DNA from: an uncultured Kordia sp.
Lineage (GTDB): Bacteria > Bacteroidota > Bacteroidia > Flavobacteriales > Flavobacteriaceae
Direction: 5' to 3'
DNA length: 64,000 nt
Assembly (NCBI RefSeq): GCF_947496985.1
Contig: NZ_CANMEZ010000005.1
Location: 310,001 to 374,000, forward strand
In this document: piece by piece, positions 1 to 36,333 of the stretch
How positions within the stretch are numbered: the stretch's first letter is position 1
How the letters are laid out: each line of letters opens with the position of its first letter
Position numbers and translations under genes: made by a program
Notes under the pieces: generated by a model
The model's database searches: none
What the model saw: the letters and a program-made list of their open reading frames with translations, nothing else
Told to the model about the DNA's origin: nothing

Positions 1-1191
1 TTTTGGGAAAGTTCGTTGCAATAACAAATTTTTTACCTGTATTGTATCTAGATTTAAATTGCTTTTTTCTGAACTATGATTTTGTAGTATTGGACAGTGT
101 AAAGAAGATTGAATAGTATCATTGCTAAGCTCGAAACATAACATTCCCAGTGACACTTCATCGTTACTATTTTTTATATGATCAAGAAATAGTGAACGTG
201 CTTTTTCTTTGTAACTATCTTTTTTTAATAGAATTCCAGCATAGTACAATGTGCTAATTTGTTCAAGAAATTCATCGTTGCTTCTATGAGTAGTAACTAC
301 TGTTTGTATTTTTTCAGCAACTGTAGCAATATTTGCTTTTAGTTGTGAATTGGAAGAATTTTGAGCGCTTGTGATGATTCCGTTACTTCCATGTTTCCAT
401 GAATAGTCGTTGTAGTTTGGCGAAAATACTTGAAGTTCCTTATTGTTATAAGCATTTATATAGTAATGTAGTTCTTCTTTTGAGGTTATTTTCTTTTTAT
501 AATTTGCCCAATTTAGATGTTGTTCATTCCATTGTGCATTTATATAATCCGTAGCCCAATCTGAAATAATGTTGAGTGCTTCATTATTGAAATATGTAGC
601 TAGTTCTCTAAAAACAAAAGCAATTCCGGCAGTTCCTTCAGCAAAGTCACATGATCCTTTTATTGTTTGATTGTTGTGATCCCAATATGCGCCTTCCTGC
701 GTAACGATCGTATCTTTAATAACTCGTTCTATATATGCTATAATGTTTTCTAAAATCCACTCTAACTGTCTAGCGTCATATAGATGTAGCAATGTTAGTA
801 AAGTTCCTGCTCTTCCTTTGTAAAGTCCATTAGTGATATCTGGAGAATGTAAAAAATCAGCATCACAACCTTTTGTAATTTCTAAAGCTTTGTTTAGATA
901 TGTATTGTTATTCGTTGCTTTTGAAACTTGTATGAGAATATATACAGTTTCCATTTGACCTTGATATAAACTATAGTCTTTAGGATTAATAGTATCGTTA
1001 TATTCTATTAATTTATCTGCTAAAGTATATAACGTTGGTAAGTATTTTTTTTGATCAGTAAATTCAAGTGCTTTGATAAGCAATTGAATGTTTTTTACTA
1101 TTTCAACGGTCTTAAAATTAGTTGTTGTACTGACCATATCTGCAATAGAAACGGCTTTGTTATATATTTCTGTTTGAGTAGTGCTATTCAT
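1..1191 (-). CDS. LanC-like protein (partial, runs off window)
   Basis: The frame is open from an ATG at 1191 to the window edge (397 codons, no stop), so the C-terminus is missing. I see repeated glycine motifs in the style of the LanC alpha/alpha toroid: GLYKGRAGTLLTLL, then CDFAEGTAGIAFVF, then SWKHGSNGI. In lanthionine cyclases the second motif normally has His-Gly and the third is W-C-x-G, with the Cys binding zinc. Here these read Glu-Gly and W-K-H-G, so the cyclase zinc site looks degenerate in the visible part. It is the last visible gene of a minus-strand RiPP tailoring run, 34 bp downstream of the DUF6734-like gene. It may be a non-zinc LanC relative or another toroid-fold protein; a catalytic role is not supported. 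Confidence 0.6.
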   Translation of the reverse strand, partial: MNSTTQTEIYNKAVSIADMVSTTTNFKTVEIVKNIQLLIKALEFTDQKKYLPTLYTLADKLIEYNDTINPKDYSLYQGQMETVYILIQVSKATNNNTYLNKALEITKGCDADFLHSPDITNGLYKGRAGTLLTLLHLYDARQLEWILENIIAYIERVIKDTIVTQEGAYWDHNNQTIKGSCDFAEGTAGIAFVFRELATYFNNEALNIISDWATDYINAQWNEQHLNWANYKKKITSKEELHYYINAYNNKELQVFSPNYNDYSWKHGSNGIITSAQNSSNSQLKANIATVAEKIQTVVTTHRSNDEFLEQISTLYYAGILLKKDSYKEKARSLFLDHIKNSNDEVSLGMLCFELSNDTIQSSLHCPILQNHSSEKSNLNLDTIQVKNLLLQRTFPK

Positions 1192-27326: not shown

Positions 27327-28610
27327 TTGAATAAAATTTTCAAATATCTCTCTGATATTGGAAGATTAGAACCTTTCGAAATAAAGAATAGTAGTTTTAC
27401 ATTCTGTTTAGCTTCTCCTAGCACATATGTATATGTGTTGATTATGCTATATTATAACCCTGGTTTAATCATTCCGTATCAAGGACAAGAAGTGTTTACA
27501 ATATTGTTTATGCTTGTTGGATTAGTGCCGTTTGCGAAAAGTAAATTTCTAAATGAAATTTATGGGTGGATTGTGTTTGTCACGCTCATCATATTTCAAT
27601 ATTATCTTACCTATACAACCGCATTAAACAATTTCTCACTCGACTATTTATTAGTTACCTATGTATTTATATTTGGTTCAGTACTGTTGCTGAGTAATCG
27701 ATTATTGGTTATTTTATTCAGTGCTTCGCAATTGATACACCTTTCATATCGTGTGTATTATTCTGAATTAGACAGCATGTCTGAAAGTGCTATTTTAGTT
27801 TCCATGAGTACAATATTTATCTTCTCTTTTTTGGTGATGAATGGTTTAATTCGATATAGAAAAAAACTAGAATCTGTCAATGCAGATTTAGAAGATCGTA
27901 TCAAGCAACGTACGATTGATCTTGAAAATAGAGCGAAAGAATTATTGCGAAAAAATAAAGACCTAGAAGAGTTTGCCTATGTAGTTTCGCACGATTTAAA
28001 ACGTCCGTTACGAAATATTTACACTTTAACTGATTGGCTTACAGAAGATGCAGCACATGATTTTGATCAGGAAGCAAATCAAAGTTTACGATTGATCAAA
28101 GAGCAAGTGACACAAATGGATTTACTTGTAGCAGGAATTCTAGACTATTCACTTCAAATGAAAACAGATCAAGAGATGAAAGTAGTTGATGCACAGGTGC
28201 TTTTAGAACGTATAATCACAGTAAACTCTAGTGAAAACGTACAAATAATACTAAAGAAAGAATTGCCGAAAGTATCATTTAATGAATCACAATTATTACA
28301 AGTATTTCAAAATCTGATTCAAAACGCCATCAAGCATAATGACAAAGAAAAAGTAGAAATTCACATTGATTATGCTGTAGTAAATGATAAGCATCAATTC
28401 ACGGTAAGCGATAATGGACCTGGAATTGAAGAAAAATATTTTGAGAAAATCTTTGAACTTTTCCAAAAACTTCAAATAGAAACCGAAGTAGATTCTGTTG
28501 GGATTGGTTTGGCTTTAGTCAAAAAAATAATAGAACGAAATGGTGGAGAAATATATGTTGAAAGTGAAGTAGGAAAAGGAACGAGCTTCTTTTTTACCAT
28601 TAAACAATAG
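27327..28610 (+). CDS. Membrane sensor histidine kinase (tandem copy 1)
   Basis: The protein (427 residues) starts at TTG, supported by alignment of its first residues with the ATG-started tandem copy (both then read LEPFEIKNSS). Residues 25-175 contain about six transmembrane helices. A coiled linker leads to the H-box FAYVVSHDLKRPLRN (H222), followed by the N-box (LIQNAIKHND), G1 (DNGPGIEEKYF) and G2 (GIGLALVKKII). No receiver domain or neighbouring response regulator is present. It is 30 bp from copy 2, so both are probably co-transcribed. The sensed signal is unknown. Confidence 0.88.
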   Translation: MNKIFKYLSDIGRLEPFEIKNSSFTFCLASPSTYVYVLIMLYYNPGLIIPYQGQEVFTILFMLVGLVPFAKSKFLNEIYGWIVFVTLIIFQYYLTYTTALNNFSLDYLLVTYVFIFGSVLLLSNRLLVILFSASQLIHLSYRVYYSELDSMSESAILVSMSTIFIFSFLVMNGLIRYRKKLESVNADLEDRIKQRTIDLENRAKELLRKNKDLEEFAYVVSHDLKRPLRNIYTLTDWLTEDAAHDFDQEANQSLRLIKEQVTQMDLLVAGILDYSLQMKTDQEMKVVDAQVLLERIITVNSSENVQIILKKELPKVSFNESQLLQVFQNLIQNAIKHNDKEKVEIHIDYAVVNDKHQFTVSDNGPGIEEKYFEKIFELFQKLQIETEVDSVGIGLALVKKIIERNGGEIYVESEVGKGTSFFFTIKQ

Positions 28611-28640: not shown

Positions 28641-29921
28641 ATGATCATACAATTCCTTAAAAAACTAGGAAAATTGGAGCCTTTTGAAATCAAGAATAGC
28701 AGTATAACGCTTATTCTTGGTGCACCAAGTACGTTTGTGTACTTGGAAGTCATGAAACATTACAATCCAGATTTGATCATACCTTTTTATGGAAATATCA
28801 TCTTTGCTAGTCTCTTTTTACTTATTGGATTATTACCATATTTAAAAAATAAATCAATACTTAGTCAATATGGTTGGTTTGTATTTGTTGCAACCTTATT
28901 ATTTCAACATTATTTAGCCTATGGAACAAGCGTTAATAATTTTTCTTTAGATTTTTTACTAGTAACCTATGTGTTCATATTTGGATCTGTATTATTATTG
29001 AGTAACCGAATATTAGTTTTGCTATATAGTGCTTCCGAATTATTGCATTTATCATATCATGTATTTAATTCAGGTTTAGATAGCATGTCTGAAAGTGCTA
29101 TTTTACTATCGTTAGGGACTATATTTATATTTTCTTTTTTGGTAATGAATGGTTTAATTCGATATAGAAAAAAACTTGAAATAATCAATTTAAATTTAGA
29201 AGAAACCGTAAAAAAACGTACGCTTGATATTGAAAATAGAGCCAAAGAGTTATTACGAAAAAACAAGGACTTAGAAGAATTTGCTTATGTAGTTTCGCAC
29301 GATTTAAAACGTCCTTTGCGAAATATGTATACATTGTCAGATTGGCTTACGGATGATGATGAAAATAACTTTGATGAAGAAACTACCAAAAGTTTAGGGT
29401 TGATAAAAGAACAAATTACTCAAATGGATTTATTGGTAGAAGGAATTCTGAACTATTCTTTACAAATGGATACGCAACAAGTAACGAAAATGGTAGATGT
29501 ACAGCACTTAGTGGAACGCATCGTTTTAGTAAATTCTCAGGAAAATGTTCAAATACAGATTCAAAAAGTATTACCAAAACTAGAATTTAGTGAATCGCAG
29601 TTATTGCAAATCTTTCAGAATCTCATTCAAAATGCGATTAAGCATACAGATAAAGAAAAGGTAGAAATCCATATTGATTATGAACTCACAAACAGAGGGC
29701 ATCAATTTTCAATACAAGACAATGGTCCAGGAATAAAAGTACAATATCACGAAAAAATATTTCAACTATTCCAAAGACTTGATGCGGAAACCAAAGGGAA
29801 TTCTATCGGAATAGGATTGGCATTGGTGAAAAAAATATTAGAACGTAATGATGGCGAAATTTATGTCAAAAGTTCTGAAGGAAATGGAACAACTTTTATA
29901 ATTACAATTCCTAATAAATAA
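28641..29921 (+). CDS. Membrane sensor histidine kinase (tandem copy 2)
   Basis: This 426-residue near-duplicate of the preceding kinase has the same six-helix N-terminal domain (DFLLVTYVFIFGSVLLLSNR is common to both). The H-box is FAYVVSHDLKRPLRNMY, with N-box LIQNAIKHTD, G1 DNGPGIKVQY and G2 GIGLALVKKILERND. The sensor regions differ mainly near the N-terminus and in the segment after the first two helices. It is followed 61 bp later by the first TPR-AraC regulator gene, which may be a functional partner, but phosphotransfer to an AraC protein without a receiver domain is not expected. Confidence 0.88.
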   Translation: MIIQFLKKLGKLEPFEIKNSSITLILGAPSTFVYLEVMKHYNPDLIIPFYGNIIFASLFLLIGLLPYLKNKSILSQYGWFVFVATLLFQHYLAYGTSVNNFSLDFLLVTYVFIFGSVLLLSNRILVLLYSASELLHLSYHVFNSGLDSMSESAILLSLGTIFIFSFLVMNGLIRYRKKLEIINLNLEETVKKRTLDIENRAKELLRKNKDLEEFAYVVSHDLKRPLRNMYTLSDWLTDDDENNFDEETTKSLGLIKEQITQMDLLVEGILNYSLQMDTQQVTKMVDVQHLVERIVLVNSQENVQIQIQKVLPKLEFSESQLLQIFQNLIQNAIKHTDKEKVEIHIDYELTNRGHQFSIQDNGPGIKVQYHEKIFQLFQRLDAETKGNSIGIGLALVKKILERNDGEIYVKSSEGNGTTFIITIPNK

Positions 29922-29982: not shown

Positions 29983-31791
29983 ATGTCAATATCCCTCTTT
30001 AAAAAGTACAATGTACTCTTTTTATGTGCGCTTATGAGTTGCGTTACATGTATTGTACAAGCTCAAAATGACAACACAATATCTTCTTCATTAGATACAA
30101 TAACGTTTAAAAAGTCATTAGAAAATAAATCGTTGGGTACACTGACTTCTATATTGTATCGTGTATATGATGTCGATTCTCTAAAAGCGAGCATTATATC
30201 AGATCACATTAAAAGTATATATATAGCTTCAGGAACACCGAAAGAAGTTGCTAGAGCATCTATAACAGTATCGATTTGGGAAGAAGCAAAAGGAAATATT
30301 GAAGAATCATTATCATTATTAGAAAAAGGAATTAGAATATCCAGAGAAATAAAGAACGACAGTATATTATATTTGGGATTACTAAGTAAAGGTGTTACTC
30401 ACTATTATCAGGCAGATCATGAACCTGCTTTAAAATTGTATTATGAAGCATTAAATATTGCAAAAAAAGAAAAAAATAGAAGATGGCAAATCGCTGTTAA
30501 AAGTAATATTGCTTTGGTAAGAATGCAGGCAGATGATACAAAAGGAGCAATTGAATTGCTGCTTGAAAATTTGGAAAAGATAAAAAAGCAACCAGATATC
30601 ATTAATGAAAAAAGTAGATTAAACTTATATCTGAACATATGTGGTGCTTATATATACATTGAAGATTATGATGCTGCCCGTCATTACTGCGAAGAAGGTA
30701 CAAAACTCAATATAGATATAAATGATGAACTTGCTATGGCACATTTTTTATCAGCTTTTGCAGAAATAGCCAGAAGTAACAAAGAATATGAAAAATGTCA
30801 TCGTTTTTTGGATGAAGCAGATGAAATAATGGAAAAGCAATTCATTCGTAAAAACCTGCGATTGTTTTTGAAATTTTATAGGGCGAAAGCTTATTTTGAT
30901 GAAAAAAAATATCAGTTAGCTGTTGATGAGCTTCATAAAATTGAAGCAATGAAAGCAGACTATGATGTTGAAATTTTGAGTATTCAACAAATGTATTACT
31001 GTTTTGCAAAATCATACAAAGAGCTTGGAAATAGTGAACAAGCTATAAAATACTATGAAAAAGCGAAACAAATAAGTACTGAAAATAATAAAATAAGAGA
31101 TAAAATAAATACGAATCTTATCAAACAATATGATCTCGTAAAACTGAAAGAGGAAATAAAAGAATTACAGCAAAATTCAAAACGTATTAAAACATTCTAT
31201 ACAATTGGAGTTGTACTATTGGTAATTATCATTATTGGGTTATTAATATTCAATAAAAAACAACAACGTAAAAACAAACAACGTTTTGAAAATCTAATGA
31301 ATCAATTAGAAAAAAAACGACAGAAAATTAAACTTCACAAAGATGAAAAACAGACAGCTTCAGAAGAAAAAATAGTCGAAAAATCTCAAAAAATTTCGAA
31401 AGAGCAACCCGCTAAAATTGATCCGAAAATTGAAGCAATTTTAACTAAGTTGGAAGAATTTGAAGACAAAGAATTATTTTTAGATAACGATAGTACTTTG
31501 GTAGAAGTAGCGAAAAAAATTCAAACGAATACAACGTATCTTTCCAAAGTGATTAATACATATAAAGAAAAATCATTTACAGCTTACATTACAGATTTAC
31601 GAGTTGATTATGCTATTGAACGATTATCACATGATCGTAAATTTAGATCATTTACCATAGGTGCTATAGCACAGGAAATTGGTTTCAAAAGGTCAGAATC
31701 ATTCTCAAAAGCGTTTAAAGTAAAAACAGGTTTGTACCCTTCGTACTTTGTGAAAGAGCTTGAAAAACAGGCAGGCAGTAATTCCGAATAG
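29983..31791 (+). CDS. Transmembrane TPR-AraC regulator 1
   Basis: The 602-residue protein has a signal-like N-terminus ending VTCIVQAQND, a periplasmic region of TPR repeats (about 90-390, for example SEQAIKYYEKAKQIS), and one transmembrane helix (about 406-424, IGVVLLVIIIIGLLIF). A charged coiled coil and a C-terminal AraC-type double HTH follow (about 500-595, AQEIGFKRSESFSKAFKVKT with TGLYPSYF). It can thus couple an extracytoplasmic ligand directly to DNA binding. The GG-leader peptide gene starts 90 bp after its stop. The stop codon lies within a 26-bp palindrome that probably belongs to the peptide promoter. Confidence 0.88.
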   Translation: MSISLFKKYNVLFLCALMSCVTCIVQAQNDNTISSSLDTITFKKSLENKSLGTLTSILYRVYDVDSLKASIISDHIKSIYIASGTPKEVARASITVSIWEEAKGNIEESLSLLEKGIRISREIKNDSILYLGLLSKGVTHYYQADHEPALKLYYEALNIAKKEKNRRWQIAVKSNIALVRMQADDTKGAIELLLENLEKIKKQPDIINEKSRLNLYLNICGAYIYIEDYDAARHYCEEGTKLNIDINDELAMAHFLSAFAEIARSNKEYEKCHRFLDEADEIMEKQFIRKNLRLFLKFYRAKAYFDEKKYQLAVDELHKIEAMKADYDVEILSIQQMYYCFAKSYKELGNSEQAIKYYEKAKQISTENNKIRDKINTNLIKQYDLVKLKEEIKELQQNSKRIKTFYTIGVVLLVIIIIGLLIFNKKQQRKNKQRFENLMNQLEKKRQKIKLHKDEKQTASEEKIVEKSQKISKEQPAKIDPKIEAILTKLEEFEDKELFLDNDSTLVEVAKKIQTNTTYLSKVINTYKEKSFTAYITDLRVDYAIERLSHDRKFRSFTIGAIAQEIGFKRSESFSKAFKVKTGLYPSYFVKELEKQAGSNSE

Positions 31792-31814
31792 TCGTTATTT
31801 ATAAATAACGACTA
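31789..31814 (+). promoter_or_regulatory. 26-bp perfect palindrome upstream of GG peptide 1
   Basis: Arms TAGTCGTTATTTA and TAAATAACGACTA are exact reverse complements, centred at 31801.5 and overlapping the stop codon of the upstream regulator. The core GTTATTTATAAATAAC shares the consensus GwwATTTATAAATwwC with the site at 34306-34321. The centre is 43.5 bp before the TATATTTG element, exactly as at the second site. It could also fold as an RNA hairpin. Confidence 0.75.
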
Positions 31815-31844
31815 ACTATGTAAAGCGTCAATTTCATTTTCTAC

Positions 31845-31852
31845 TATATTTG
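31845..31852 (+). promoter_or_regulatory. -7 element of GG peptide 1
   Basis: TATATTTG, a full TAnnTTTG match, lies 29 bp before the ATG at 31882. No TTTG -33 element is seen, consistent with activator dependence. Confidence 0.65.
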
Positions 31853-31881
31853 GAAGAACATTCATTAATAAAATATGCAAT

Positions 31882-32103
31882 ATGAAAAGAGAAATAAAAT
31901 TGAAGTTGGAAGTAAACAAAATAAACGTATCTAAATTGAATAACATTGTTGGAGCGGGAGATGATAATGTACCTTCTGTTAATTCTCCATGTGTTATTAC
32001 TACTGAACCGAAAACAATAGAATATGATAATTGTAAAACAGGAGATACAAAAACTGATAGAAGTTTAGACTGTGTCATTTTAGCATCAGGGGATAGATGT
32101 TAA
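31882..32103 (+). CDS. Short GG/GAG-leader cysteine peptide 1 (73 aa)
   Basis: The peptide starts MKREIKLKLEVNKINVSKLN, followed by NIVGAG and a polar core with four Cys (NSPC, YDNC, SLDC, GDRC, the last being C-terminal). The L-x-V/F-x-K-x-x-V-x-x-L leader resembles other double-glycine leaders in this window, with GAG in place of GG. It has its own promoter and terminator and follows the TPR-AraC gene. The likely fate is leader cleavage and export by a peptidase-containing ABC transporter, perhaps with disulfides or other modification. Whether it is a signal, a bacteriocin or a lanthipeptide is not decided by the sequence. Confidence 0.75.
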   Translation: MKREIKLKLEVNKINVSKLNNIVGAGDDNVPSVNSPCVITTEPKTIEYDNCKTGDTKTDRSLDCVILASGDRC

Positions 32104-32521
32104 GAACACAAAATAATAATCTATTAAAAACTCTCTAAATCATATTTAGGGAGTTTTTTTATTCAATTTCTTAAAAATGGGTTCGTTCCTAAGAAAAAAT
32201 CTTCATAATGATGTATACGATGAACTGCATGTATGATGTGTTTTTTAAATTCTACTTTCTTTCGTACTTATTACAGTATTTAAAGGCAAAGCTATTGTTA
32301 TCATGGCACAAACAAAAAAATATAAATGGTAACTTTATAAAAGCATCTCTGAATTCATAAAATCCGAGTCCAGTTATTAAAATTATCAATTTGATTACTA
32401 ACAAACTAATGGCATTTGTTAAAAATTGCTGGGAAAACTGTAGTAAAAATAATGTAAAACCCTTATTTTTGATATACTGCCGACTTAACAATACATTAAA
32501 ACCTAAGAAAACCTATTTCAT
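32104..32521. other. Intergenic region between GG peptide 1 and TPR-AraC gene 2
   Basis: It contains the terminator of the peptide gene. A minus-strand frame of 79 codons (32252-32491) is hydrophobic and very Phe/Ile/Lys-rich, as random AT-rich sequence would be. I see no family match and do not call it a gene. Confidence 0.4.
32129..32160 (+). terminator. Terminator of GG peptide 1
   Basis: The 12-bp stem AACTCTCTAAAT/ATTTAGGGAGTT has one G-U pair and a CAT loop and runs into seven T. Confidence 0.85.
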
Positions 32522-34291
32522 ATGCACCTCCAAAAACATATGGTACTTCTAGTATTGATTATATCTTTTGGCTATAATCAGCAATCTTTTGCAAATAACA
32601 GTTTGCAAGACACAATTCAAAGCTTTAACAAAGAAGAATTCAAAGCATCTTTAAAAGAGTTAGCGCCTAAAGAATTTGCGCGTTTGTTTGCACAAAAATA
32701 TGAGAAAGATTCTTTGAAAACTACTATATGTATAATGCATGTAAAAAATAGTATGTTAACTTCAGAGGATTCAATAGAACAATATTGGGGATACCTTTGT
32801 TTATCAAATTGGCAGAATAATATAATGAATCATGAAGAATCTGTAGTTAACCTTAATAAATCTCTACAAATAGCAAAATCTTTAAATGATGATAACTTAA
32901 TTATGACTTCTTTACAAGATAGAGGAAATAGTTATTTTGATTTTGGAGAATATGAAAAAGCTATGGAGGATTATCTTCAAGTATTAGATTTAGCTAAAAA
33001 GACTAATGACCAAGTTAGAGAACAAGTAATATCATTAACTATTTCTTTAATAAAAATGCAAACTAATGATTTTCCAGGTGCAATAGAATTGTTAAACGGG
33101 TTATTAAAAACAATTAAGGATGATGAACCTAAAACATTACATATAAATGTTTATATAGCATTAACTAAAGGATATATTGGGATTGGAGATTACAATCAAG
33201 CAAAACGCTACTGTGAGAAAGGATTAGAGTTAAGCGAAAAGTTAAATGATAATGAGGCAAAATTTTACTTTTTTTCATTTTTAGGAAGAATAGCCTCTTT
33301 AAATCAAGATTTTGAAGAAGCACATGAGTTTATACAGAAATCATTGAACATTGCAGAAAATTTAAAAACCATAGATCATGAAATTCCTGTATTATATATA
33401 GAAAAAGGAGAAGTTTTCTATAAAGAAAAAAGATATAAAGTAGCTATAGAGTTTTTGCTAAAAGCAGATACTTTGATGCAAAAGCATAAACTTGATTTCA
33501 TAAAATTAGAAGAAGCATATGCTTTATTAGCAAAGTCATACAAAGAGGTTAATGATATTGAAAATAGTTTAAAGTATTATGAAAAAGCAAACGAGGTCTA
33601 TAAGAAAAATGATAAACGACAAGATAACATAAGTGTAGATATTGTAAAAAAATATGATTTACAATCGTTAAAAGAAGAGTTGATTGCAGCAGAAGAATCT
33701 TCCGAAAAAACAAAGAATATATTAATAGTAAGTGTTTTTGTAGCTTCATTTACGGTAATTGGAATAGTTTTCTTTTTCCGAAAACGAGAAAAAAATAATC
33801 AACGTAAATTTGAAGAGTTATTAAGGAGTATAGAGGAGAAAGAAAAAGAAGAAAAGTTGGAAGCAGTTGTTGAAAAAGGTAAAGTCAAGAAAATTGCTAA
33901 AGCTGAGATTAAAGAAGTCGAAATTATTGATGAAACCAAAGCGAAACTCCTCAAAAAACTGAATAATTTTGAAGCAAAAGAATCGTACTTAAGCAAACAT
34001 TGTAGTTTAAATGAAGTGGCGAAAAAATTAAAGACAAATACCTCTTATTTATCAAAGTTAGTCAATGCGCATAAAGGGAAATCGTTTACTGCATATATTA
34101 CAGAATTACGAGTTAATTATGCAATTAAACGGTTAAAAAACGATAAAAAATTCCGTTCTTATACTATTGATTCTATAGCGCAAGAAATAGGTTTTAATCG
34201 TTCAGAATCGTTCTCCAGAGCCTTTAAAAACAAAACAGGTTTGTATCCGTCATATTACATTAAGAGTCTTGATAATAAGGGTGTTATGTGA
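32522..34291 (+). CDS. Transmembrane TPR-AraC regulator 2
   Basis: The 589-residue paralogue of the regulator at 29983 has a signal peptide (LLVLIISFGYNQQSFA), TPR repeats (for example YEKAMEDYLQVLDLAKK and IENSLKYYEKANEVYKK) and a transmembrane helix (about 400-417, ILIVSVFVASFTVIGIVFFF). A Lys/Glu-rich linker leads to an AraC-type DNA-binding domain (about 488-585, AQEIGFNRSESFSRAFKNKT). The DNA-binding domains of the two copies are much more alike than their TPR regions, suggesting similar operators but different ligands. The second GG peptide gene begins 100 bp after its stop. Confidence 0.88.
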   Translation: MHLQKHMVLLVLIISFGYNQQSFANNSLQDTIQSFNKEEFKASLKELAPKEFARLFAQKYEKDSLKTTICIMHVKNSMLTSEDSIEQYWGYLCLSNWQNNIMNHEESVVNLNKSLQIAKSLNDDNLIMTSLQDRGNSYFDFGEYEKAMEDYLQVLDLAKKTNDQVREQVISLTISLIKMQTNDFPGAIELLNGLLKTIKDDEPKTLHINVYIALTKGYIGIGDYNQAKRYCEKGLELSEKLNDNEAKFYFFSFLGRIASLNQDFEEAHEFIQKSLNIAENLKTIDHEIPVLYIEKGEVFYKEKRYKVAIEFLLKADTLMQKHKLDFIKLEEAYALLAKSYKEVNDIENSLKYYEKANEVYKKNDKRQDNISVDIVKKYDLQSLKEELIAAEESSEKTKNILIVSVFVASFTVIGIVFFFRKREKNNQRKFEELLRSIEEKEKEEKLEAVVEKGKVKKIAKAEIKEVEIIDETKAKLLKKLNNFEAKESYLSKHCSLNEVAKKLKTNTSYLSKLVNAHKGKSFTAYITELRVNYAIKRLKNDKKFRSYTIDSIAQEIGFNRSESFSRAFKNKTGLYPSYYIKSLDNKGVM

Positions 34292-34305
34292 TTTTTTTTG
34301 CTCTC

Positions 34306-34321
34306 GAAATTTATAAATTTC
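34306..34321 (+). promoter_or_regulatory. 16-bp palindrome upstream of GG peptide 2
   Basis: GAAATTTATAAATTTC is a perfect palindrome centred at 34313.5. It shares GwwATTTATAAATwwC with the palindrome before GG peptide 1, and its centre is again exactly 43.5 bp before a TATATTTG element. Confidence 0.75.
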
Positions 34322-34356
34322 TAGATGTATTTTATGTAAAATTACACTTCTGGTTT

Positions 34357-34364
34357 TATATTTG
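34357..34364 (+). promoter_or_regulatory. -7 element of GG peptide 2
   Basis: TATATTTG lies 27 bp before the ATG at 34392, identical to the element before GG peptide 1 and without a clear -33 box. Confidence 0.65.
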
Positions 34365-34391: not shown

Positions 34392-34703
34392 ATGAAAAAG
34401 AAAGATTTCCTCTCTAAATTACAATTCCAAAAAATAACTGTTGCTACTTTTAGTTCATTAAAAAGCTTAAAAGGTGGGACTTTACAAGGACCAGGAACAG
34501 AAATAGTATCTAGAAATGGATTTACATGCCCTTCTGGTGTATGTGTGCCCATTGAAACACAGGATGATAGATGTATATCCATAGTGCCTACAATGTGTTC
34601 ACGCCCTACAAATACTAGAACAACTGATGATTCAAAATTTTGTGGAGCAACTCAAGGTGATGAGTCTAAAATTATATGTACAGAAACACAAGTTATCTGT
34701 TAG
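34392..34703 (+). CDS. GG-leader cysteine-rich peptide 2 (103 aa)
   Basis: The leader MKKKDFLSKLQFQKITVATF is followed by SSLKSLKGG and then a 74-residue polar core with seven Cys (TCPSGVCVP, DDRC, TMCS, KFCG, IICT and a terminal C). Thr and Ser are frequent. The leader has the L-x-F-x-K-x-x-V/I pattern of the other GG peptides here. It has its own promoter, palindrome and terminator and follows TPR-AraC regulator 2. Export by a GG-peptidase transporter is likely from the leader type; the transporter is not in this window. Odd Cys count would leave one Cys unpaired unless modified or intermolecular. Confidence 0.75.
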   Translation: MKKKDFLSKLQFQKITVATFSSLKSLKGGTLQGPGTEIVSRNGFTCPSGVCVPIETQDDRCISIVPTMCSRPTNTRTTDDSKFCGATQGDESKIICTETQVIC

Positions 34704-34723: not shown

Positions 34724-34754
34724 AAAAGGACTTCTTGTAGAAGTCCTTTTATTG
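34724..34754 (+). terminator. Terminator of GG peptide 2
   Basis: A perfect 12-bp stem AAAAGGACTTCT/AGAAGTCCTTTT has a TGT loop and ends in T-rich sequence. Confidence 0.85.
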
Positions 34755-36108: not shown

Positions 36109-36333
36109 TTATATTGGATCAAACTCTTCACAGCTAATGTGAACCAAAGCACATGCTTGATATTCAATAGGTAAAGAGTTATAATGAGCGCAGCTTCCAC
36201 AACCTTGGACTGGACCAAAGCAAACTGGACCATTATAGCTAGAACAATTTCCAATGAAACCTCCTAAAGTGTTTTGTTGTTGAGTTTTATTCAACTCTTT
36301 TATTCCGTTTATTTTTAAAATATTCTTTAACAT
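36109..36333 (-). CDS. Orphan GG-leader cysteine-rich peptide (74 aa)
   Basis: The peptide begins MLKNILKINGIKELNKTQQQ and the leader ends NTLGG. The 48-residue core contains six Cys (GNCS, PVCFG, GCGSC, YQACA, ISCEE), several Gly and few charges, and ends EFDPI. It differs from the Lys-rich leaders elsewhere in the window but has the double-glycine cleavage site and a Cys-rich core. It stands alone between kdsA and typA with no maturation or export genes beside it. Bacteriocin-like or signal peptide roles are both possible. Confidence 0.65.
   Translation of the reverse strand: MLKNILKINGIKELNKTQQQNTLGGFIGNCSSYNGPVCFGPVQGCGSCAHYNSLPIEYQACALVHISCEEFDPI

What the first reader, a model, noticed from the sequence alone, without database searches (positions are those of the whole stretch)
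31789..34364. Two GG-peptide genes share a palindromic operator at identical distance from identical -7 boxes
Before the GG peptide at 31882 there is a 26-bp perfect palindrome (centre 31801.5), and before the one at 34392 a 16-bp perfect palindrome (centre 34313.5). Both fit GwwATTTATAAATwwC. Each centre lies exactly 43.5 bp upstream of the first base of TATATTTG, and neither promoter has a -33 box. The rest of the two upstream regions looks unrelated, so the shared core and spacing point to an operator for the same activator, most likely the TPR-AraC proteins encoded just upstream. An upstream element near -55 with no -33 box fits activation.
Basis: partly seen in the sequence, partly recalled or inferred. 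Interest (0 to 1): 0.85.

Follow-up and report, generated by a model that had tools for sequence, protein, structure and literature searches.

The report
Operators of paired peptide-gene switches
Two small secreted-peptide genes in a marine bacterium each carry a mirror-image DNA switch at exactly the same distance from their start signal, and this proves to be one case of a repeated regulator-switch-peptide cassette, which makes it testable whether these bacteria run many parallel peptide-controlled circuits.

Summary
In the window's own genome, 11 of 12 ATTTATAAAT...TAnnTTTG pairs found with gaps of 33-43 have the same 38-base gap. Of 20 exact sites at that gap (TAnnTTTR), 18 precede a GG-type peptide or a lipoprotein-like gene plus GG peptides. 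Operators differ between paralogs and track the DNA-binding domain of the upstream TPR-AraC. So the two window genes most likely have two activators, each with its own operator, not one shared activator. I infer a membrane-anchored TPR-AraC dimer that activates the adjacent peptide promoter; sensing of that peptide by the TPR domain is plausible but unproven. The rule did not carry over to 29 further TPR-AraC loci of the order (1 of 29 at 43.5, 7 of 29 beside a GG-type ORF).

The parts
29983..31791 (+). TPR-AraC regulator 1 (602 aa): N-terminal signal-like helix, TPR superhelix about residues 47-371, hydrophobic stretch about 404-424 inside a long helix, C-terminal AraC-type HTH
   Evidence: Pfam TPR_12 3e-13 and HTH_18 45.0 bits over cut-off 33.6; AlphaFold2 model mean pLDDT 84.3; signal-like and hydrophobic segments read from the sequence, no topology predictor run
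31789..31814 (.). operator 1, 26-bp perfect palindrome TAGTCGTTATTTATAAATAACGACTA, overlapping the stop codon of regulator 1
   Evidence: variants of it stand behind the relatives of regulator 1 in ten other genomes of the genus
31845..31852 (+). -7 box TATATTTG of peptide 1, first base 43.5 bp from the operator centre
   Evidence: TAnnTTT[GA] at the same place (gap 38 or 39) behind 8 of 10 relatives
31882..32103 (+). peptide gene 1 (73 aa, ...LNNIVGAGDD...; GG-type leader with GAG at the site)
   Evidence: no Pfam or NCBIfam match; several relatives have GG here
32130..32161 (+). hairpin plus T run after peptide 1, probable terminator
   Evidence: by eye
32522..34291 (+). TPR-AraC regulator 2 (589 aa), 36% identical to regulator 1
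   Evidence: Pfam HTH_18 59.9 bits, TPR_12 71.3 bits; identity
34303..34324 (.). operator 2, CTCGAAATTTATAAATTTCTAG (16-bp perfect core 34306-34321)
   Evidence: CTCGnnATTTATGAATTTCTAG behind 9 of 10 relatives of regulator 2, one change in the tenth
34357..34364 (+). -7 box TATATTTG of GG peptide 2, first base 43.5 bp from the operator centre
34392..34703 (+). GG peptide gene 2 (103 aa, ...SLKSLKGGTLQ...)
   Evidence: NF038153 class I lanthipeptide leader 19.6 bits, below the cut-off of 22
34726..34753 (+). hairpin plus T run after GG peptide 2, probable terminator
   Evidence: by eye

Best explanation
Each palindrome is the operator of the TPR-AraC protein encoded just upstream. Shown by sequence: the cassette TPR-AraC gene - palindrome (about 22-26 bp) - 43.5 bp - TAnnTTT - GG-type peptide gene recurs as paralogs within one genome, in other Kordia and in Aquimarina and Dokdonia, with a spacing fixed to the base while operator sequences diverge with the DNA-binding domain. 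Inferred: the protein sits in the inner membrane with its TPR domain in the periplasm and its HTH domain in the cytoplasm; a two-fold dimer binds the palindrome beside the -33 region (centre about -55) and recruits RNA polymerase to a promoter with a weak or missing -33 box, so the peptide is made only when the TPR domain has met its signal. A minority class places the palindrome one helical turn further away (53.5-55 bp), which fits face-of-helix-dependent activation. Related palindromes at unlinked peptide promoters suggest that some regulators also act in trans.
For: Spacing lock in the own genome: 11 of 12. Genus: gaps 38 (23) and 39 (16) among 44 fetched sites of 45 found in 10 other genomes. 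Motif-free test: 36 of 170 TPR-AraC 3' ends at 43.5 (own genome 6 of 40, other Kordia 17 of 75, outside Kordia 13 of 55) against a mean of 1.07 at the other distances; 22 of 120 after dropping loci with ATTTATAAAT, ATTTATGAAT or ATTCATAAAT. Controls: 4 of 422 other ORF 3' ends (mean per distance 1.7), 2 of 152 TPR-AraC 5' flanks (mean 2.0). Two distinct footprints behind the two regulators in 10 other genomes. In the own genome 33 of 40 TPR-AraC 3' ends have a short ORF starting within 170 nt, 28 of the 33 with a literal GG in the first 34 residues; 30 of 36 non-Kordia loci have a GG-type ORF within 500 nt. 18 of 20 exact sites precede a GG-type peptide or a lipoprotein-like gene plus GG peptides. 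Operator distance correlates with HTH distance r=0.65, partial r=0.39 given TPR distance, against 0.16 for TPR given HTH (51 loci). The same core at the same spacing lies at peptide promoters with no TPR-AraC next door, so it is not a by-product of the regulator's 3' end.
Against: No binding, expression or start-site data. Palindromes alone are only modestly enriched (56 of 170 loci with at least 8 of 9 arm pairs, against 70 of 429 other 3' ends), and only 10 of 33 own-genome regions and 9 of 31 other Kordia regions beat dinucleotide shuffles at p<=0.05. About four fifths of the 170 loci (134) show no strict palindrome-box pair at 43.5. The 36 are not corrected for relatedness; under a looser arm threshold 46 sites reduce to 35 nonredundant ones. 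In 29 further TPR-AraC loci of the order only 1 is at 43.5 and 7 are beside a GG-type ORF. Vertical descent inflates the correlations: for HTH distances over 0.35, r falls to 0.17. AraC proteins usually bind direct, asymmetric sites (recalled), so a two-fold site needs explaining. Repression instead of activation is not excluded.
Confidence: 0.8

Rival explanations
1. The palindromes are intrinsic terminators of the TPR-AraC genes and only happen to lie before the peptide promoters.
For: Operator 1 begins in the stop codon, and palindromes are common at other gene ends too (70 of 429).
Against: No T run follows either window palindrome, the stems are A+T-rich, and the same core at the same 38-base gap stands before peptide genes with no TPR-AraC directly upstream (C3:137054, C3:360123, C8:199201 and 199577). 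Other gene ends show no clear excess at 43.5 (4 of 422, largest at any distance 5).
Confidence: 0.05
2. One global factor, not the adjacent TPR-AraC, binds ATTTATAAAT at all these promoters.
For: ATTTATAAAT at this spacing is shared by many promoters in the genome, and most of the 20 exact sites are not directly behind a TPR-AraC gene.
Against: The same spacing is kept with quite different operators (CCTGTAATTATCGAATTACAGG, GTCGTATTTTCATAAATACGAC, CCGTATTTTAGACAAAATACGG); arms go with the adjacent relative and track the HTH domain.
Confidence: 0.1
3. The TPR-AraC proteins bind these sites as repressors that block RNA polymerase until relieved.
For: Operator and promoter are close, and 11 of 35 relatives have a TTG in the -33 zone.
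Against: The proximal arm ends about 32 bp before the -7 box, leaving the core promoter free; both window promoters lack a -33 TTG, and spacing fixed to the base or shifted by one turn is typical of activators (general knowledge).
Confidence: 0.15
4. One TPR-AraC activates both window peptides.
For: The 16-bp consensus GwwATTTATAAATwwC and the spacing are shared.
Against: Two paralogs at 36% identity, each with its own operator type across the genus. Cross-binding through the common core is not excluded.
Confidence: 0.12

Closest known systems
AraC/XylS-family activators (E. coli AraC at araBAD, MelR; recalled)
   Same: AraC-type HTH (Pfam HTH_18 over cut-off); site just upstream of the promoter with fixed phase and a weak or missing -35 equivalent
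   Different: Fused to an N-terminal TPR superhelix and a predicted membrane segment; the site is an inverted repeat, not direct half-sites; tens of paralogs in one genome, many with their own operator and peptide
RRNPP peptide quorum-sensing receptors (Rap, NprR, PlcR, PrgX, Rgg) of Bacillota
TPR sensor histidine kinase FimS (NCBIfam NF053520)
   Same: Similarity of the N-terminal TPR region, far below the cut-off (39.0 and 27.7 bits, cut-off 600)
   Different: No kinase domain; output is an AraC HTH in the same chain
GG-leader RiPP and bacteriocin loci of Bacteroidota (PMC8939145, PMC10352776; passages seen)
   Same: GG-type precursor peptides with TPR or HTH genes nearby; the first leaves the TPR role unclear, the second suggests regulation
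   Different: The passages seen describe no operator, no fixed spacing and no regulator-peptide pairing

Membership tests
AraC/XylS family | AraC-type helix-turn-helix domain | tested here: met
   HTH_18 45.0 and 59.9 bits against cut-off 33.6 for regulators 1 and 2
AraC/XylS family | binds DNA at the target promoter and activates it | not testable with these tools
   only spacing and covariation evidence
RRNPP receptors | peptide-binding TPR domain | tested here: inconclusive
   fold match to Rap and NprR, but at least as good to LGN and other TPR proteins; no ligand known
RRNPP receptors | small propeptide gene adjacent to the receptor gene | tested here: met
   33 of 40 TPR-AraC 3' ends in the own genome; 30 of 36 non-Kordia loci; that the peptide is a signal is not shown
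RRNPP receptors | cytoplasmic receptor with XRE-type HTH or phosphatase output | tested here: not met
   output is AraC HTH; N-terminal signal-like and internal hydrophobic segments read from the sequence
class I lanthipeptide leader (NF038153) | score over the curated cut-off of 22 bits | tested here: inconclusive
   peptide 2: 19.6 bits as a protein but 22.1 with its neighbours in the frame in the genome search; peptide 1: no match in either
intrinsic terminator | G+C-rich hairpin followed by a T run | tested here: not met
   no T run directly after 31814 or 34324; A+T-rich stems (by eye)

The most novel reading that the evidence does not exclude
A Gram-negative analogue of RRNPP signalling: tens of parallel, mutually insulated peptide circuits per genome, in which each exported GG peptide (cut after GG, perhaps modified) is the ligand of the periplasmic TPR domain of the membrane-bound AraC regulator that switches on its own gene and a trans regulon of further peptides through a private palindrome at fixed phase.
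Probability: 0.3. Interest if true: 0.92.

Novelty: new variant of a known kind. Interest (0 to 1): 0.76.

Why it matters
The window's genome and its relatives carry very many GG-type peptide genes of unknown role. This gives many of them a candidate regulator, an operator that can be read off the sequence and a strict spacing rule, so regulons can be predicted genome-wide. It offers a natural set of tens of paralogous activators with divergent operators in one cell, useful for working out DNA recognition and insulation in AraC proteins. It also makes directly testable whether Bacteroidota use peptide pheromones sensed by TPR domains.

Tried and rejected
Terminator reading: rejected (see rivals). 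A strict TAnnTTTG search upstream of 144 GG hits found boxes within 160 nt for only 22 and, on the 15 usable ones, a weak peak at 43.5, because boxes vary (TTTG, TTTA, TTTC) and many peptides lie in tandem. Palindrome enrichment by itself is modest. An operator-box pair upstream of the TPR-AraC genes themselves (autoregulation through the same site): 2 of 152 at 43.5, mean 2.0, no sign of it. Extension to the order: 29 loci, 7 beside a GG-type ORF by the script's filter (L402 looks like an eighth), 1 at 43.5; the rule is therefore claimed only for the GG-peptide-linked TPR-AraC genes of Kordia, Aquimarina, Dokdonia and a few relatives. Peptide-TPR coevolution: core against TPR r=0.38, partial given HTH 0.16; too confounded by common descent to show sensing. 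A plasmid tblastn of the neighbouring TypA gene did not help to name the host. Literature searches listed no paper that I recognised as describing this cassette; that covers only the held open-access library, and listings were capped.

Dropped rows: of 75 rows I used the first 40 and left 35 lower-scoring ones; 2 of the 40 are short fragments. Of 147 matches, 144 were typed into the script; the three left out lie in long open frames (181, 236 and 537 aa). Of 45 genus sites outside the own genome, 44 were fetched; the one left out has gap 36. Of the order search, only the loci returned (29 besides the own genome) were examined.
Full report
WHAT IS THERE. Both palindromes, their centres and their distance to TATATTTG are exactly as reported. 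The first, 31789-31814, starts inside the stop codon of a 602-aa TPR-AraC gene; the second, 34303-34324 in its 22-bp form, lies 11 nt behind the stop codon of a 589-aa paralog. Each is followed by TATATTTG 43.5 bp from the centre and, 29 and 27 nt after the end of that box, by a small GG-type peptide gene with its own terminator-like hairpin (by eye). No TTG lies between palindrome and box.

IS IT CHANCE? In the window's genome (5.48 Mb, 61 contigs) ATTTATAAAT followed by TAnnTTTG with any gap from 33 to 43 occurs 12 times, and 11 of the 12 have the same gap of 38; the backward pattern occurs once. Allowing TAnnTTTR gives 20 exact sites at gap 38, and one mismatch gives 52 against 10 for the backward control. 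Of the 20, 16 stand directly before a GG-type small ORF, 2 before a lipoprotein-like gene followed by GG peptides, 1 before a large secreted-type protein and 1 before another ORF. In ten other genomes of the genus, the 44 fetched sites of 45 have gaps 38 (23), 39 (16), 40 (2), 37, 35 and 33 (one each).

THE RULE IS WIDER THAN THE MOTIF. The own genome holds 38 full-length TPR-AraC paralogs among the first 40 rows. Of 40 examined 3' ends, 33 have a short basic-start ORF beginning within 170 nt of the stop, and 28 of those 33 show a literal GG in the first 34 residues. Many of the gaps contain different palindromes, for example GTCGTATTTTCATAAATACGAC, CCTGTAATTATCGAATTACAGG, CCCTATTTTATCTAAAATCGGG and TCGAAATCTAACAATTTCGA, these four centred 43.5 bp from a -7-like box. 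In Aquimarina and Dokdonia the operators change again (CCGCATTTTGTTCAAAATGCGG, CCGTATTTTAGACAAAATACGG and others) and TATATTTC starts at the same 43.5 bp.

FORMAL TEST. I collected 170 TPR-AraC 3' ends (40 own genome, 75 other Kordia, 55 outside Kordia) and, without using the motif, counted loci with an even palindrome (at least 7 of 9 arm pairs) at each distance from TAnnTTT. At 43.5: 36 loci (6 of 40, 17 of 75, 13 of 55); the other 84 distances average 1.07; the next highest are 54.5 (7) and 44.5 (6). Without ATTTATAAAT-like cores: 22 of 120. Controls with the same script: 4 of 422 other ORF 3' ends (mean per distance 1.7, largest 5) and 2 of 152 TPR-AraC 5' flanks (mean 2.0, largest 5). The loci are not independent: with a looser threshold (6 of 9) 46 sites at 43.5 reduce to 35 that are less than 75% identical. 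Palindromes alone are not special: 56 of 170 against 70 of 429; it is the phase that is. A minority class sits one helical turn out: CCTCAAATTAAGTAATTTGAGG-type operators at 53.5-54.5 and the odd-centred AATTCACGGAATT type at 54-55; some of the 54.5 counts are shadows of 43.5 sites.

WHO BINDS? Relatives of both window regulators, side by side or nearly so in most cases, were found in all ten other genomes (assigned by best match and place, no tree). Behind them stand two distinct footprints with otherwise diverged spacers: for regulator 1 variants of GTCGTWATTTATAAATnACGAC (5 of 10 exact; a TAnnTTT[GA] box at gap 38 or 39 in 8 of 10), for regulator 2 CTCGnnATTTATGAATTTCTAG (9 of 10 exact, the tenth one change). 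A further regulator-2-like copy in one genome, L114, has no such site. The two window proteins are 36% identical. So the window pair is best read as two activators with two operators of one architecture; the identical core in this genome reflects an A in operator 2 where the ten others have G. Across 51 loci, operator distance follows HTH distance (r 0.65; partial given TPR 0.39) more than TPR distance (partial given HTH 0.16). Vertical descent contributes: for distant pairs r is only 0.17. Unlinked peptide promoters fall into arm classes that resemble a particular regulator's operator (...CGAC/CGAT like operator 1...GGCAC like the C12 cassette...CATCAA like the C5:7453 cassette), which suggests regulation in trans (inference by eye).

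WHERE IT STOPS. In 29 further TPR-AraC loci returned from a search of 148 genomes of the order, 7 are followed by a GG-type ORF and 1 has the 43.5-bp pair (mean of other distances 0.40); good palindromes occur beside some of the GG-linked ones (GTCGATATTTATAAATATCGAC at 53.5, GTTTAGATTTATAAATCTAAAC at 43.5). The rule belongs to the GG-peptide-linked branch, not to all TPR-AraC proteins.

HOST. The genus is Kordia by inference: relatives G001, G002 and G010 have contigs of exactly the lengths of K. aestuariivivens, K. algicida OT-1 and K. zhangzhouensis records. The species of the window was not determined.

LITERATURE. Passages were seen in PMC8939145 (TPR proteins in graspetide loci, role 'unclear'), PMC10352776 (TPR and HTH genes in Bacteroidales RiPP loci), PMC7477175 (Kordia genomes; the terms AraC, TPR and tetratricopeptide do not occur in its main text) and PMC10734526 (Kordia and Aquimarina rich in biosynthetic clusters; AraC and tetratricopeptide do not occur). 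None of these passages describes the cassette. RRNPP papers were seen as search listings only. Promoter consensus, AraC site geometry and RRNPP architecture are otherwise recalled.

Noticed in passing
G000 loci upstream of GG peptides, e.g. C2:320152, C3:40260, C5:246247, C2:48291: A second operator-like element, GGTnnn(n)(n)CCGTA, lies 65-72 nt upstream of the start of 10 GG hits (12 of 144 have the pattern within 200 nt; reversed control 1). Possibly another regulator class.
   Followed up: partly
L189, L221, L215, L228, L347, L353, L386: The Rfam DUF805b RNA motif (RF02914) occurs in 7 of 9 loci given (not in L229, L258): before GG peptides in Kordia and, downstream of operator and -7 box, of GG peptides next to TPR-AraC genes in Aquimarina and Dokdonia.
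   Followed up: partly
window 1-1191 (-): A LanC-like domain (PF05147, 54 bits) lies at the window edge, G000:C5:310319-311083; the own genome has four LanC-like matches in all.
   Followed up: no
window 27327-28610 and 28641-29921 (+): Two tandem, similar sensor histidine kinases directly upstream of TPR-AraC 1; relation to the cassettes unknown.
   Followed up: no
window 36109-36333 (-): A third GG-type small ORF (74 aa...QQQNTLGGFIGNCSS...); no ATTTATAAAT match lies near it.
   Followed up: no
own genome G000: 147 matches to the class I lanthipeptide leader profile in one genome (E up to 10, most below the cut-off), which looks like an unusual number of GG-leader peptides.
   Followed up: partly
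L122, L131, L135, L136, L141, L142, L157: A promoter family in the genus with gap 39 and an extra similar stretch (like TGATTATAAGTGTTTTG) right of ATTTATAAAT, near a conserved membrane-protein gene on the other strand, before GG peptides in four cases.
   Followed up: no
L131, L158: Gap-38 sites before a small gene without GG, MSFLIAIEEAPAKSKKK..., in two Kordia genomes.
   Followed up: no
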